Assembly: GCA_001871075.1 (NCBI GenBank)
Contig: MNUP01000009.1
Span: forward strand, 1 to 15,843
Direction of reading: 5' to 3'
Length of the DNA: 15,843 bases
Origin: Candidatus Desantisbacteria bacterium CG1_02_49_89
Lineage (GTDB): Bacteria > Desantisbacteria > UBA1551
Made by a program: the position numbers and the translations under genes. A model generated the notes under the pieces. The model saw only the letters and a program-made list of their open reading frames with translations, was not told the origin of the DNA and searched no databases. Within the stretch, counting starts at the first letter, position 1, and every line of letters begins with the position of its first letter. Shown piece after piece: positions 487 through 15,843 of the stretch.

Positions 487-546
487 CGTTGCGAGCGATA
501 GCGAAGCAATCTCGTATTGGATTGCTTCACTTCGTTCGCAATGACA
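487..546. repeat. TCATTGCGA-type inverted repeat, copy 1
   Basis: The left arm 487-511 (TTGCGAGCGATAGCGAAGCA) pairs with the right arm 519-546 (GGATTGCTTCACTTCG then TTCGCAATGACA). The same element recurs at 3546-3660 and 11279-11344, always in intergenic DNA of the sugar cluster. Confidence 0.75.
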
Positions 547-595
547 TATTGTGTGAAAATCCCGTTTTTCTCTGTGACCCCTGTGGTTAATTTTA

Positions 596-3454: not shown

Positions 3455-3680
3455 AGATCATCCTTTTGCCATTAAGGCAATATTAACCACGTTAACCACA
3501 CGATTCCACTTTAACCATACGATTACACTAGATTTCCACCAGAAATGTCATTGCGAGGAATGAAATGACGAAGCAATCCAAGAGATTGCCGCGGGCTTTG
3601 CCTGCAGGCTTTGCCTGCACAACGACTTCGTCGGATTGCTTCACTTCGTTCGCAATGACAAGAAAAGTGAGATCGCGTGG
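3455..3680. repeat. Intergenic repeat mosaic between Gfo/Idh gene and TPR gene
   Basis: The gap is bracketed by AACCAC at 3485-3490 and GTGGTT at 3677-3682; the latter overlaps the stop codon of the Gfo/Idh gene. Within it lies the inverted repeat 3546-3660. The loop of that repeat contains two direct copies of the 13-mer GGCTTTGCCTGCA (3594-3606, 3607-3619). No reading frame of interest is seen. Confidence 0.7.
3546..3660. repeat. TCATTGCGA-type inverted repeat, copy 2
   Basis: The left arm 3546-3579 begins TGTCATTGCGAGG and ends GAAGCAATCC. The right arm 3633-3660 begins GGATTGCTTC and ends CGCAATGACA. The ends are exact inverted copies. It is the longest copy in the window and carries an internal tandem 13-mer. 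Confidence 0.82.
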
Positions 3681-6680: not shown

Positions 6681-6697
6681 AATAGGGACAGGCACCA
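6681..6697 (+). repeat. Left copy of 17-base inverted repeat bounding the GHKL-Fic island
   Basis: AATAGGGACAGGCACCA on the plus strand is an exact inverted match to 10324-10340. Similarity continues inward as a T-rich stretch and AAATCCTT/ATTCCTTT with small gaps. It abuts the URO-D start codon. Confidence 0.8.
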
Positions 6698-6758
6698 ATT
6701 TTTAAATCCTTATTTTAAATGATTTTTAAAGCTACTTTTCAAATTTTTGAATTTCGTC

Positions 6759-6794: not shown

Positions 6795-7844
6795 TTATTT
6801 TAAGATGTAATGCAGGGACCGGCCCTTGCCTTTGCTTTTAATTACATCGAGTTTAACCAACTTCTTTATTTCTTTAAGCGCGCCTTCATCTGAAAGCTTA
6901 AACATTTCCCTGACATCCCTGTTGGTTATCCCTTTATTTTTATTAGCGTATTCCACGATCTGCATCTGCCGCGGGGTAAGCGCGATCTGGGCGCTCTTTC
7001 TGGTCCTGATCCCCAGTTTCAAGATCGCCTCTTTTACTTTCTTCATTGAAGATACCACGCCGTCTGTGAAATATTCCAGCCATTTTGTCAGATCTCGCGT
7101 TTCCTTGTCCACGGTTTTCAGCGCGTTATAATATGATTGCCGGTCCTTGTCATAAAAATCATCAAGTGCGAATATCCGCCTGTGGTCAAAACCGCTTAAA
7201 TAAAGGACAAGCGTCGCAAGCAGCCTGGCTGTCCTGCCGTTCCCGTCTATGAAAGGATGGATCCTTGCTATCTCATAATGAACAATTCCCGCAAGCAGGA
7301 CAGGGTTCATCTCAAACGTATCTTCCAGATTAAGCCATTCAATAAACTCATTTACCAAAACCGGGACTTCTTCTGTTTTGGGCGGCATATACGTAATCTC
7401 TTCTTTGAATCCGGTCCCGTTAAAAACCCTCCTTCCCACAAAAACCTGCCTGTTCCTGAATGCGCCGCAGTCAGAATCATTGTTAAGCGTGCCTTTCGTG
7501 ACCATTTTGTGGATATTGAGCAGATCCCGGATCGTGAATTTTCCCTTTTCCGCGAGGACGGGGATTTTTTCCAGGGCTTCAAGATAGTTCAGGACCTCCT
7601 GCTTGTCTTTTTCTTCCGCAATGACATTTTTCCCCTCTGCCAGGTCCTCCACCTGTTTGAGATCCAGCCTGTTCCCCTCAATGGCGGTGGATGAATGCGA
7701 ATTGCTAAGGATTGCCTGGCGCCTCAGCTTCGCCTCCCATTGAGGCACCAGATGCGACTGCTCAATGACCTCGCGCGCGGAGGTAATTGCCGTAAGATTG
7801 TTTAGGATTTTATCAGTTATCGTGTATTTCGGATTAAATAGCAT
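6795..7844 (-). CDS. Fic family protein (class II, AMPylation-type) with C-terminal winged helix
   Basis: This 349-residue protein has the Fic signature HPFIDGNGRTAR at 196-207, matching HPFx(D/E)GNGRxxR, so the catalytic His and the phosphate-binding loop are intact. An N-terminal inhibitory helix motif (S/T)xxxE(G/N) is present as S52-TAI-E56-G57, which defines class II, self-inhibited enzymes. Residues about 285-349 look like a winged helix-turn-helix (TPRQMQIVEYANKNKGITNRDVREMF), a common C-terminal partner. Known relatives transfer AMP or another nucleotide to a protein hydroxyl. It is the last gene of a four-gene operon, and its ATG overlaps the previous stop codon by one base (TAATG). 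Within that operon it may modify one of the other three products or a host target; this is inference. Confidence 0.93.
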   Translation of the reverse strand: MLFNPKYTITDKILNNLTAITSAREVIEQSHLVPQWEAKLRRQAILSNSHSSTAIEGNRLDLKQVEDLAEGKNVIAEEKDKQEVLNYLEALEKIPVLAEKGKFTIRDLLNIHKMVTKGTLNNDSDCGAFRNRQVFVGRRVFNGTGFKEEITYMPPKTEEVPVLVNEFIEWLNLEDTFEMNPVLLAGIVHYEIARIHPFIDGNGRTARLLATLVLYLSGFDHRRIFALDDFYDKDRQSYYNALKTVDKETRDLTKWLEYFTDGVVSSMKKVKEAILKLGIRTRKSAQIALTPRQMQIVEYANKNKGITNRDVREMFKLSDEGALKEIKKLVKLDVIKSKGKGRSLHYILK

Positions 7845-8287
7845 TATACCCCCATACTAAATTTATCAGGCTGCCAGCCGCCGCATGTTTCGAATATCTT
7901 GTGGCCTATAAACGGAATAAAGCACTGAATAATGGTATTTGCGTCTAAGTTTCCTTGTTTCACCTTTCGATGAAGAGCGCGGTTAATTGTGCCAAGCGCA
8001 AGATAATCATTGCCGAGTATATCGGGATAATGTTTCTCGCATATATCAGCCAGATAGTTTTCCAGCTCTGTTTTTTTCACAATTATAAGACCGCAGTCTG
8101 CGCAGAACCTGCATGATTTGTTAAATGAGAAAAGATTTTTTGGATCTACGTGGATGATTAGACAAAACATCCGCTCTTTAGTTGTCTTCCTGTTGCATTG
8201 CGGGCAGCGGGTGAAAGCAATGTCATCATACTTATTTAAAAAGAAATAGTATCTATGTTCTCGATTGCCTGCCCATCCTTTTGTCAT
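7844..8287 (-). CDS. Small Cys-rich zinc-ribbon protein of unknown function
   Basis: This 147-residue protein has CPQC at 28-31 and C59-x2-C62-x2-C65 (CRFCADC), which together make a likely zinc ribbon or treble-clef site. An LALGTINRAL segment near 96-105 and a final FETCGGWQPDKF stretch follow. I do not recognise the family. The start at 8287 is chosen because AAAAGGA lies just upstream. The frame stays open to a TTG at 8320, which would overlap the preceding stop codon, so an 11-residue longer form is possible. The stop overlaps the Fic ATG by one base, which suggests translational coupling. By context it works with the SWIM and GHKL proteins. Confidence 0.8.
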   Translation of the reverse strand: MTKGWAGNREHRYYFFLNKYDDIAFTRCPQCNRKTTKERMFCLIIHVDPKNLFSFNKSCRFCADCGLIIVKKTELENYLADICEKHYPDILGNDYLALGTINRALHRKVKQGNLDANTIIQCFIPFIGHKIFETCGGWQPDKFSMGV

Positions 8288-8316
8288 TTTTTTCCTTTTC
8301 TGAACAGATTGCTGGT

Positions 8317-8769
8317 TCAATCGAATTTATCCACGGTTTCATCTTCTTCTGCTTCTTCTCTTGTTTCTTCTTCAAATCCTTTTATCCCAAGTGCGGCAAG
8401 AGATTCCGACGACCGTAAAATCATATTCCTGATAATATTCAAAAGCCCTGTTTTTGTTTTCTTCTTCAGGTTTTTGATTACATCATTAAAGTCAACGAAA
8501 GTTTCAGGGGCGATTTCATACGTTTTAGCAAGAGCAAACGCATGCTTGCACGGCCAATAATCAGACGGACAGGTGCAGGTTATTTTTTTGTTATCCTTCA
8601 TATCTATCTGCGTGCGGTAATCACCGTAATTTCCCTGAATTCTGCAACTGATGATCCTGCCGATTTTCAGTCGATGAGTAATGCGGGGAGAATTTACGTA
8701 TTCGGCTATGCGGTCAGCCATTGTGTTCTGTCTATCTTTCTTTGCATCTCTTCTTGCCTTTGTTTTCAT
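8317..8769 (-). CDS. SWIM zinc-finger protein
   Basis: This 150-residue protein has one clear SWIM motif, C65-x-C67-x6-C74-x-H76 (CTCPSDYWPCKH), preceded by a beta-rich lead (ISCRIQGNYGDYRTQIDMKD) typical of the domain. SWIM domains are known to bind DNA or proteins. The N-terminus is Lys/Arg-rich and the C-terminus is very acidic (EEETREEAEEDE), so it may make charged contacts with partners or nucleic acid. The start at 8769 has AGAGG seven bases upstream and lies 11 bases after the GHKL stop codon. A TTG at 8784 overlapping that stop is an alternative. As a stand-alone small SWIM protein in an operon with a GHKL ATPase, it is probably an adaptor. Confidence 0.88.
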   Translation of the reverse strand: MKTKARRDAKKDRQNTMADRIAEYVNSPRITHRLKIGRIISCRIQGNYGDYRTQIDMKDNKKITCTCPSDYWPCKHAFALAKTYEIAPETFVDFNDVIKNLKKKTKTGLLNIIRNMILRSSESLAALGIKGFEEETREEAEEDETVDKFD

Positions 8770-8780
8770 ATTTGCCTCTT

Positions 8781-10232
8781 TCAAGCAAGGGCATCCTTGA
8801 GCAGTTTGCTCTGGCGCTCAAATGCCTGGCGCGGATTGCGCGGGTCCTTCATAAGAGAAATTTCCTGCGTGATGAGACGAGCAAGGTAGAAAATGTATGC
8901 CTCTCTGTCCTTCACCGCTCTCTGATGAAGCGGGTGGTCGCGGTTAATCGTAATGATGGTTCCCTGTGTTTCGCATTCGGGACCTTCGGGTCCGAAGTGG
9001 TCTATGAGACAACTTACTCCCTCCCTGCCTGCTGCCAGCCTTTTTACGACAGCGGTAGGGGTCAGGGGTTTGACAGAAGGGCGTTTCATTCTTTTCTTTT
9101 TTGGCTGTTCTTCTGTTTTCGCGGCAGCCCTCTCTGTTTTACCGGGTTTTCCGCTTCCTGTAAAACCGGGAGTTCCTTCCCCGGCTTTTCCTTCTTCTCC
9201 GACCGGCAGCAGACCTTCGGGACAGAATTCAGGATTCATAAAAAGACTGTCTTTTACTCTTTCAAGTACCTCGGTCAGCACCCGCTTGGTTCTCCGGTTT
9301 TGCTTGAAGTCAGAAAGTTCTTCAACGGTCTTTTTAACTCTTTCCATCACTCTTTCCATCACTTTGCGGAAAGCCTTATATTCCTCGCTGTCCCTTATAA
9401 AATCACTGCGGTCACTTGTTATTGGAAGGAAATCCGCGTTGACCTCGCCGGTCACCCTTGCCGCGCCTATCTCCCACTTTTCAATCCCGAAGAAATCCCT
9501 GCGGATTGTCGCCTGCTTGACCTTACATTCAACGCCGGCTTCTTTCGCGTCCGTCCGGGATATCGGAGTGATTATTATCTCGCCGTGGACTACTCCGAAA
9601 TCAGTTCCTTCAAGAAAAGGAATCCTGTGCCCCGGAACGAACCTTGGAGAGACTTTTTTGTCATTCAAAAACACCGAGAAGTGCGGAGCCTTCAAAGGAA
9701 CGGATTCTATGAGACGCCTCTCCACGTCCGCGAGATTGAATTTTTTCCTCAGTTTTTTCAAAGTGACAACCGTGCCGTCTGGCTTTTCGGAATCAACCGG
9801 TTCTGCAAAGAACGGAAGATTCCAGGATTCAGGGGATTTCTCCCACTCATCCTTGTCAAATACGACCTTTGCCTGAAAATCGCCCTTCTTTGTCCAAACT
9901 TCAAAATACGGACAGGCCGAGAGAACCGCGAATTTGCCTATGCCAAACTCACCTATGCGGTCCCTGTCGAATTTTGGGGATTTGCGGTGAAGTCTTTTGT
10001 GGGGTGAGCCGATGTTGAAATACTGTTCAATATCCTTCCTGTCCATTCCGCTGCCGTTGTCTGAAATGATAATTTCGTCATCGCTGATTTTTATGCGGAC
10101 CTCGCTTGCATCAGCATCGTAGGCGTTGTTTACCAGCTCCCTGATCAGCTCAACGCTTTCGCCGTATAACCGCTCGCCTATGGTAACGATGTGGGTCTTA
10201 TCCACTGTCACAGAAATAGTATTTTCAGCCAT
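8781..10232 (-). CDS. GHKL (Hsp90/MutL/MORC-type) ATPase with unassigned C-terminal domain
   Basis: This 483-residue protein starts with a full Bergerat ATP-binding fold: N box ELVNNAYDADA with E32 and N36, DNGSGMD at 58-64, the lid GEFGIGKFA at 94-102 and DGTVVTL at 152-158. A second, S5-like region extends to about 290 and contains TSDRSDFIRDSEEYKAF, a pattern seen in MORC-like and Hsp90-like proteins. A Gly/Pro/Lys/Glu-rich linker (about 340-392) leads to a compact C-terminal part with INRDHPLHQRA and YLARLITQEISLMKDP that I cannot assign. No HATPase partner domain of histidine kinases is present. The start at 10232 has AGGAG five bases upstream. It is the first gene of the four-gene operon, and it probably acts as an ATP-driven clamp or switch. 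Confidence 0.88.
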   Translation of the reverse strand: MAENTISVTVDKTHIVTIGERLYGESVELIRELVNNAYDADASEVRIKISDDEIIISDNGSGMDRKDIEQYFNIGSPHKRLHRKSPKFDRDRIGEFGIGKFAVLSACPYFEVWTKKGDFQAKVVFDKDEWEKSPESWNLPFFAEPVDSEKPDGTVVTLKKLRKKFNLADVERRLIESVPLKAPHFSVFLNDKKVSPRFVPGHRIPFLEGTDFGVVHGEIIITPISRTDAKEAGVECKVKQATIRRDFFGIEKWEIGAARVTGEVNADFLPITSDRSDFIRDSEEYKAFRKVMERVMERVKKTVEELSDFKQNRRTKRVLTEVLERVKDSLFMNPEFCPEGLLPVGEEGKAGEGTPGFTGSGKPGKTERAAAKTEEQPKKKRMKRPSVKPLTPTAVVKRLAAGREGVSCLIDHFGPEGPECETQGTIITINRDHPLHQRAVKDREAYIFYLARLITQEISLMKDPRNPRQAFERQSKLLKDALA

Positions 10233-10306: not shown

Positions 10307-10323
10307 TATAAAAGGAATAAAAA

Positions 10324-10340
10324 TGGTGCCTGTCCCTATT
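10324..10340 (-). repeat. Right copy of 17-base inverted repeat bounding the GHKL-Fic island
   Basis: TGGTGCCTGTCCCTATT on the plus strand is the reverse complement of 6681-6697. It overlaps by one base the TAA stop of the isomerase gene, so the island begins exactly where that gene ends. Between this repeat and the GHKL start (10233-10323) there is only the candidate promoter and ribosome-binding site. Confidence 0.8.
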
Positions 10341-11197: not shown

Positions 11198-11375
11198 GCT
11201 AAACCCCCTGTAAACCACAAAATTTCCACGAAAGCACGAAAAATTCAGCCATGGATTTGCACGGATTAATACAAGAAATGTCATTGCGAACGAAGTGAAG
11301 CAATCCGGAATTTAGATTGCCACGCCCTTCGGGCTCGCAATGACTGATAGACAGTCATCTTGTGGAATCGCGTGG
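11198..11375. repeat. Bracketed intergenic repeat between rhamnosidase and isomerase genes
   Basis: AACCAC at 11213-11218 pairs with GTGGTT at 11372-11377, which contains part of the rhamnosidase stop codon. Inside lies the third TCATTGCGA-type inverted repeat (11279-11344) and a short exact hairpin ATGACTG/CAGTCAT (11340-11346, 11352-11358). No gene is seen. Confidence 0.72.
11279..11344. repeat. TCATTGCGA-type inverted repeat, copy 3
   Basis: TGTCATTGCGAACGAAGTGA at the left end mirrors GGGCTCGCAATGAC at the right end, around a short loop. It is the shortest of the three full copies. Confidence 0.72.
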
Positions 11376-14831: not shown

Positions 14832-15404
14832 TTATCTTGGGATTGTATTAGCGATCTCGCGGCACAGGATCTGCAGGAGGAATTCCGGGTCTTTTTTCAT
14901 GCGGTCCCTGTCCTGCGGGTCCACAAGCGCCTGTATCCTGGAGTCAGAGCTCCTGAATGTATCTTTTGCCTGCCAGACCTGCGAGCCCTTTTCAACAGAC
15001 ACAAGCCGAACGCTTATCCCCGCTTCCCCCGGCTTATACGCCGAAAGCGTTCCCAGCACCACCCCGTGCGCTCCCAGCATCTTCCCGATCTTTACCGCGG
15101 TGGATTCGTCAAGGCGTTCCGGGTCAAAATCCTGCTCCTTGAAAACTTCCTGTATGCGCAGCCTTTCCACGAGCGTGAAATGCCCGGTCTTTCCCAGCTG
15201 GAGGTTGAATTCCTCGGTCGCCTTTTCCCCGGCAAGAACATCGCCTGAAACGTTCTTGAACGGCAGGACCGCGACCCTTTTCTCCCTTATGTCCTTGAGC
15301 GAGTTGGCGTCAAGAAAAAAGTTGGTCACCTTGTATGCCGCAGGCGGCGCCGCGCATCCCGCTACCATAACCACCGATAATATCAAAAGCATTTTACGAT
15401 ACAT
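14832..15404 (-). CDS. CsgG-like envelope lipoprotein
   Basis: This 190-residue protein starts with a lipoprotein signal peptide: hydrophobic core LLILSVVMV and a lipobox VAGC with the lipid-accepting C17. The mature part has the CsgG/FlgO-type pattern KRVAVLPFKNVSGD at about 42-55, FTLVERLRIQEVFKEQDF, and a VKIGKMLGAHGVVLGTLSAY strand-helix-strand. Known relatives sit at the outer membrane as secretion-pore or envelope-associated proteins. This one is too short to be a full CsgG pore. AGGAGG lies just upstream of the ATG at 15404. It is a close tandem paralogue of the partial gene at the right edge, and its core fold recurs in the TPR protein at 1754-3454. Confidence 0.87.
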   Translation of the reverse strand: MYRKMLLILSVVMVAGCAAPPAAYKVTNFFLDANSLKDIREKRVAVLPFKNVSGDVLAGEKATEEFNLQLGKTGHFTLVERLRIQEVFKEQDFDPERLDESTAVKIGKMLGAHGVVLGTLSAYKPGEAGISVRLVSVEKGSQVWQAKDTFRSSDSRIQALVDPQDRDRMKKDPEFLLQILCREIANTIPR

Positions 15405-15653: not shown

Positions 15654-15843
15654 TTATTTTTCTATTGTAAGAGCGAATTCGCGGCACAGGGTCTGGCTGA
15701 GGAATTCAACGTCCTTCACCAGTCTATCCCTGTCCTGCGGATCAACAAGCGCCTGGATCCTGGGGTCATTACCCTTGAAGGTCTCTTTTGCCTGCCACAG
15801 CTGCTCGCCTGTCTCAACGTTTACCATGCGCACGCTTATCCCG
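15654..15843 (-). CDS. CsgG-like lipoprotein paralogue, C-terminal part
   Basis: The last 62 codons and the TAA stop of a gene that continues beyond the right edge are present. The sequence ISVRMVNVETGEQLWQAKET, the following QALVDPQDRDR and the final TLCREFALTIEK align without gaps to the end of the neighbouring lipoprotein, with roughly 60% identical residues by eye. It is therefore a tandem duplicate upstream in the same orientation. The signal peptide and lipobox are not in view, so membrane anchoring is inferred from the paralogue. Confidence 0.82.
   Translation of the reverse strand, partial: GISVRMVNVETGEQLWQAKETFKGNDPRIQALVDPQDRDRLVKDVEFLSQTLCREFALTIEK

What the first reader, a model, noticed from the sequence alone, without database searches (positions are those of the whole stretch)
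6795..10232. Four-gene GHKL ATPase / SWIM / zinc-ribbon / Fic operon, a candidate undescribed defence or stress module
The sequence shows a GHKL ATPase with an unassigned C-terminal domain, a stand-alone SWIM protein, an unrecognised Cys-rich protein and an intact class II Fic enzyme. They are packed with gaps of 11 and 29 bases and a one-base TAATG overlap. GHKL/MORC-like ATPases are known partners in bacterial restriction-type conflict systems, and Fic enzymes are known toxins or protein modifiers. I know of no named system with this four-part composition. I infer an ATP-driven sensor (GHKL) with nucleic-acid or protein adaptors (SWIM, zinc ribbon) and a Fic effector kept off by its own inhibitory helix.
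Basis: partly seen in the sequence, partly recalled or inferred. Interest (0 to 1): 0.8.

Follow-up and report, generated by a model that had tools for sequence, protein, structure and literature searches.

The report
Mosaic GHKL–SWIM–zinc–Fic operon
Four tightly packed bacterial genes look like one defence machine, but only the first two (a MORC-like ATPase and a zinc-finger protein) are found side by side in a second lineage; the other two are rare or self-standing genes, so this is a local assembly, possibly carried between ends of a small mobile element, and not a conserved four-part system.

Summary
Four minus-strand genes (GHKL ATPase, SWIM, Cys-rich, class II Fic) are packed with gaps of 11 and 29 bases and a TAATG overlap. 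The four-part system is not supported. None of 36 near-full-length GHKL relatives has SWIM, Cys-rich or Fic neighbours. The Cys-rich family was found otherwise only as isolated genes on three Nostoc plasmids, and in 0 of 385 other sampled genomes. The Fic is a SoFic-like enzyme, a known one-gene toxin type. One link is real. In a second lineage (G095) the closest GHKL outside the window's group (61% identity) is followed directly by a SWIM protein. In the GHKL tree the window, G001 and G095 form a supported clade, and both members with sequence downstream have SWIM (2/2, against 0 of about 39 elsewhere). The GHKL model resembles MORC/Hsp90 GHKL-S5 clamps. All four genes lie between 22-base inverted repeats. 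The 16-base core occurs nowhere else in the genome, and its one-mismatch variants flank a Y1 (RAYT-type) transposase gene. SWIM and Cys-rich have lower GC than their neighbours. Best reading: a MORC-like ATPase with a SWIM adaptor, plus an unrelated Cys-rich gene and an autonomous Fic, brought together locally and possibly mobile. A defence role is inferred, not shown.

The parts
8781..10232 (-). GHKL-S5 ATPase, 483 aa, MORC/Hsp90-like, with a variable linker (about 341-389) and a conserved C-terminal domain (about 390-483)
8317..8769 (-). stand-alone SWIM zinc-finger protein (150 aa from the ATG); resembles the N-terminal part of PADLOC PDC-S62
7844..8287 (-). Cys-rich protein (147 aa from the ATG), two CxxC pairs at 39-42 and 70-73 plus C76 (numbering of P0003); relatives seen only on Nostoc plasmids
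6795..7844 (-). class II Fic AMP-transferase, SoFic-like, 349 aa, intact active site and inhibitory motif
6681..6702 (-). inverted repeat, Fic-side end: AAAATTGGTGCCTGTCCCTATT on the minus strand; 4 bases before the start codon of the next gene
10319..10340 (+). inverted repeat, GHKL-side end: AAAAATGGTGCCTGTCCCTATT; begins in the stop codon of the upstream gene

Best explanation
The four genes are a locally assembled operon, not a conserved four-part system. Its core is a two-gene unit: a MORC/Hsp90-like GHKL-S5 ATPase that should dimerise on ATP binding and clamp or remodel DNA or a protein complex, with a SWIM zinc-finger protein as its nucleic-acid or protein adaptor. The fold and ATP site are predicted from sequence and a model; the GHKL-SWIM pairing is shown in two lineages; clamp action and partnership are inferred. 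The Cys-rich protein is a sporadic, probably zinc-binding gene of plasmid-like distribution. The Fic is a SoFic-type AMP-transferase, held off by its own N-terminal helix, that can act without the others (inferred from the known single-gene SoFic). The set sits between inverted repeats like those around a Y1 transposase gene in the same genome, which suggests, without proving, that it came in as one piece. The likeliest biological role is mobile-element or phage conflict.
For: Intact ATP-site motifs and 34-row alignment with invariant GHKL residues; model matches MORC2 and Hsp90/TRAP1, E about 1e-13. GHKL-SWIM: G095 GHKL ends at L209:7473 and a 589-aa SWIM-DUF6880 protein starts at 7474, full-length PDC-S62, E 5e-62; P0002 matches the same model, E 3.6e-7, and aligns to it across and beyond SWIM. 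WIN+G001+G095 clade 98/92. Against a four-part unit: 0/36, Cys-rich in 1/386 genomes, the window's own. Mosaic composition: GC3 0.40-0.43 for SWIM and Cys-rich, 0.535-0.65 for the GHKL, Fic and surrounding genes. Repeat: the exact 16-mer occurs at these two sites only, 22 looser copies elsewhere, none for the reversed control; outward-facing pairs flank Y1 genes on C38 and C114.
Against: GHKL-SWIM rests on two loci; the other three genomes in that part of the tree have contig ends just after or inside GHKL and cannot be tested. The two SWIM proteins differ in length (150 vs 589 aa) and a direct BLASTP finds nothing. The tight packing in the window would also fit a real four-gene unit private to this lineage. 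Most end-like repeats in the genome are single, and about 0.2 outward pairs within 3.7 kb are expected by chance, so mobility is not proven. No expression, biochemistry or phage test exists.
Confidence: 0.6

Rival explanations
1. A genuine four-component defence or stress system, private to an under-sampled phylum: GHKL senses, SWIM and Cys-rich adapt, and Fic is the effector.
For: Tight packing with translational coupling; GHKL-SWIM recurs; the SWIM and Fic proteins match PADLOC models of candidate or known defence genes; only one other genome of the phylum is held, with GHKL cut by the contig end.
Against: 0 of 36 GHKL relatives and none of the three located Cys-rich relatives carry the set; the Fic type works alone elsewhere (PMC12249575); base composition differs between the genes; G095 has GHKL-SWIM without the other two.
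Confidence: 0.15
2. Four unrelated genes placed in tandem by chance insertions, co-transcribed but with no functional partnership, GHKL-SWIM included.
For: Most GHKL relatives stand alone with shifting neighbours; decayed C-terminal relics show that GHKL is dispensable.
Against: SWIM directly follows GHKL in both testable members of one clade and in none of about 39 other loci (about 1 in 1000 by a simple count that ignores relatedness).
Confidence: 0.2
3. GHKL is a housekeeping or repair clamp (MutL/Hsp90-like), not a defence protein; the other three are passengers.
For: Slow-evolving family (49-57% identity across Nitrospirota, Desulfobacterota and others), often next to alaS in Nitrospirota, found on no plasmid.
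Against: Patchy: 10 of 386 diverse genomes, lost and decayed in places, and several relatives sit beside toxin-antitoxin genes.
Confidence: 0.2

Closest known systems
Prokaryotic MORC / paraMORC GHKL ATPases (Iyer, Abhiman and Aravind 2008, PMC2292703)
   Same: GHKL plus S5 ATPase module with a C-terminal extension; best fold matches include MORC2 and MORC3; patchy distribution.
   Different: No superfamily II helicase, methylase or nuclease beside it; the C-terminal domain was matched to no named family here; most members stand alone.
SoFic (single-gene AMP-transferase anti-phage toxin; PMC12249575)
   Same: Near full-length PADLOC SoFic match (E 1.2e-59), Fic motif, N-terminal inhibitory motif, C-terminal winged-helix-like region.
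   Different: 66 bits against the NCBIfam equivalog cut-off of 550, so not an orthologue; lies last in an operon; no room for an AS1-like antitoxin gene just downstream.
PDC-S62 (PADLOC single-gene defence candidate, SWIM protein)
   Same: The G095 neighbour is a full-length member; the window SWIM protein matches its N-terminal region.
   Different: The window protein lacks the DUF6880-like remainder; no published test of PDC-S62 was found.
REP-associated tyrosine transposase (RAYT) elements, IS200/IS605-like
   Same: Inverted ends as on the Y1 transposase element of contig C38, with the same Fic-side inner sequence (AAATAAGG..TTTAAAAAT).
   Different: No transposase between the window ends, and four cargo genes instead.

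Membership tests
Prokaryotic MORC/paraMORC | GHKL ATP-site motifs followed by an S5-type domain | tested here: met
   Motifs found; model with GHKL then alpha+beta domain, Foldseek to MORC2/Hsp90, E about 1e-13 (mean pLDDT 75).
Prokaryotic MORC/paraMORC | Gene neighbourhood with superfamily II helicase or restriction enzymes (about 70% of MORC neighbourhoods in PMC2292703) | tested here: not met
   No helicase or restriction gene recognised beside the window operon or as a recurring neighbour of 36 relatives.
SoFic | Catalytic HPFx[DE]GN[GA]RxxR | tested here: met
   HPFIDGNGRTAR at 196.
SoFic | N-terminal inhibitory [ST]xxxE[GN] motif (class II) | tested here: met
   STAIEG at 52.
SoFic | Score above the NCBIfam SoFic equivalog cut-off | tested here: not met
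   66.4 bits against 550; the PADLOC model does match, E 1.2e-59.
SoFic | AS1-like small antitoxin gene downstream (47 aa in E. coli, PMC12249575) | tested here: not met
   Only about 114 bases between the Fic stop and the far end of the repeat.
PDC-S62 | Full-length match to the 566-position model | tested here: not met
   Positions 40-139 only; full-length in the G095 neighbour.
RAYT / IS200-like element | Paired ends like those around a Y1 transposase in the same genome | tested here: met
RAYT / IS200-like element | Y1 transposase inside the element | tested here: not met
   None between 6681 and 10340; Y1 genes lie on other contigs.
RAYT / IS200-like element | Empty site in a close relative | tested here: inconclusive
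   No relative with the flanking sugar genes was found: best matches to the flanking gene are 31-42% identical.

The most novel reading that the evidence does not exclude
A GHKL-SWIM clamp-adaptor pair is an undescribed conflict system of one GHKL clade, here carried with extra cargo (Cys-rich protein and a SoFic-like toxin) as one transposase-less RAYT-type mobile cassette that inserted into a sugar-catabolism operon.
Probability: 0.2. Interest if true: 0.6.

Novelty: new variant of a known kind. Interest (0 to 1): 0.36.

Why it matters
If the GHKL–SWIM link is real, it would be a minimal bacterial version of an ATPase clamp working with a zinc-finger reader, as in MORC proteins, where the ATPase and the CW zinc finger lie in one chain. 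If the repeats are working ends, it would show IS200-like ends moving a multigene operon. The four-part system as first proposed would matter more but is not supported.

Tried and rejected
Four-gene co-occurrence: tblastn and motif searches around 43 GHKL loci found none of the three partners. Viral contigs: no relatives of the SWIM or Cys-rich proteins, and only distant ATPase-domain matches for GHKL. Phages and plasmids: no Cys-rich match in phages, three in Nostoc plasmids, none for SWIM, GHKL or close Fic on plasmids. Empty-site test: no usable relative. Link of Fic genes to the repeats: a second Fic, on C120, has a repeat end near its 3' side but is a different Fic type (RhuM-like N-terminus) without a partner end, so I took it as coincidence. 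Reading the 84-91% identical C-terminal matches (L043-L045) as a shared domain in other proteins: they are decayed relics. Literature searches found no GHKL–SWIM or GHKL–Fic system.

Full report
Observation. The four genes are real and packed as described: GHKL 10232-8781, SWIM 8769-8317, Cys-rich 8287-7844, Fic 7844-6795, all minus strand, gaps of 11 and 29 bases, then a shared base in TAATG. GHKL, SWIM and Fic are recognised by Pfam above cut-off; the Cys-rich protein is not recognised above a cut-off by any library used.

Co-occurrence. A scan of 84,980 species genomes with the GHKL protein gave 43 loci, mostly Nitrospirota and Desulfobacterota at 49-57% identity. In 36 loci with most of the gene, no SWIM, Cys-rich or Fic relative lies nearby by tblastn, profile search or motif search; most have 3-6 kb on each side, although a few end within 1 kb. 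The neighbours shift from locus to locus apart from alaS and an adjoining gene in one Nitrospirota group. In a sample of 386 diverse genomes, GHKL of this family is in 10 and the Cys-rich family only in the window's own genome. The Cys-rich protein has three relatives at 38-40% identity, all on Nostoc plasmids, none next to SWIM, GHKL or Fic.

The part that recurs. One of the ten genomes, G095, carries the GHKL closest to ours outside our phylum (61%), and a SWIM protein of 589 aa begins at the base after its stop codon. That protein is a full-length PADLOC PDC-S62 member; our SWIM protein matches the N-terminal part of the same model, and the two align over SWIM and about 35 residues beyond it, although plain BLASTP finds nothing. 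In a maximum-likelihood tree, window, G001 and G095 form a clade (98/92) within a five-genome group (99/97). G001, G346 and G184 cannot be tested because their contigs end within or just after GHKL. So both testable members have SWIM, against none of about 39 others: roughly 1 in 1000 by simple counting, which ignores relatedness. G095 lacks the Cys-rich and Fic genes, and has an AbiE toxin–antitoxin pair upstream.

What the proteins look like. The GHKL model (mean pLDDT 75, low between 341 and 389) has the GHKL fold, an S5-like domain, a helical pair and a small conserved C-terminal domain. Foldseek's best matches are MORC2, MORC3 and Hsp90/TRAP1. The Fic has catalytic and inhibitory motifs intact and matches SoFic in PADLOC but falls far below NCBI's SoFic equivalog cut-off. 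SoFic acts as a one-gene toxic anti-phage protein (PMC12249575), so the Fic needs no partner.

Surroundings. The operon sits between a sugar-isomerase-like gene and a uroporphyrinogen-decarboxylase-like gene, in a run of minus-strand sugar genes that includes a rhamnosidase-like gene (family names here are from my reading of the translations, not from a search). It is bounded by a 22-base inverted repeat, 6681-6702 and 10319-10340, starting in the stop codon of the upstream gene and ending 4 bases before the next start codon. The 16-base core is found exactly twice in the 2.48-Mb draft, here; 22 copies with one or two mismatches exist and none of the reversed control. Outward-facing pairs like ours surround Y1 transposase genes on contigs C38 and C114, and our Fic-side end shares the inner sequence of the C38 transposase 3' end. 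Most other copies are single, long intergenic gaps in the window carry other repeat families too, and about 0.2 such pairs are expected by chance. I rate a mobile cassette as plausible, about even odds. SWIM and Cys-rich have GC3 of 0.40-0.43, the GHKL, Fic and flanking genes 0.535-0.65, which fits a mosaic.

Conclusion. The four-part system is not supported; a GHKL–SWIM pair is, at the level of two loci and one clade. The most likely working is an ATP-driven MORC-like clamp with a SWIM adaptor, joined locally by an unrelated Cys-rich gene and a self-inhibited Fic. That the unit defends against phages or mobile elements is inference from family and neighbourhood; nothing here tests it.

Noticed in passing
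L043:6001-6171, L044:6001-6114, L045:6001-6099: Short C-terminal relics of the GHKL gene (78-91% identical, no intact gene found elsewhere in those genomes), in L044 right after a small two-gene, toxin-antitoxin-like pair: the gene decays and is dispensable.
   Followed up: partly
G001:C82 end, G125:C186 and C42 ends, G346:C50, G184:C263: Metagenome contigs often end inside or just beside this GHKL gene, as if strain variation or repeats lie there.
   Followed up: no
window 14832-15404 and 15654-15842, minus strand: Two neighbouring lipoprotein-like genes with 72% identical DNA over 224 bases, a tandem duplication cut by the window end.
   Followed up: no
window 519-562, 3632-3660, 11263-11307 and others: Several dispersed intergenic repeat families (for example GGATTGCTTCACTTCGTTCGCAATGACA) fill the long gaps between genes.
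   Followed up: no
L005:5571-5945: A SprT-like protein gene with a metallopeptidase-like YHEILHK motif starts 7 bases after the GHKL gene, and a stretch like the GHKL N-terminus (39 aa, 67%) lies 0.6 kb upstream.
   Followed up: no
L209:4599-6025; L019, L021, L034, L042: AbiE, nucleotidyltransferase or VapBC-like toxin-antitoxin genes lie beside several GHKL relatives.
   Followed up: partly
L123 (G001:C82) upstream of GHKL: The gene upstream of GHKL in G001 looks like RtcB with an intein (by eye).
   Followed up: no
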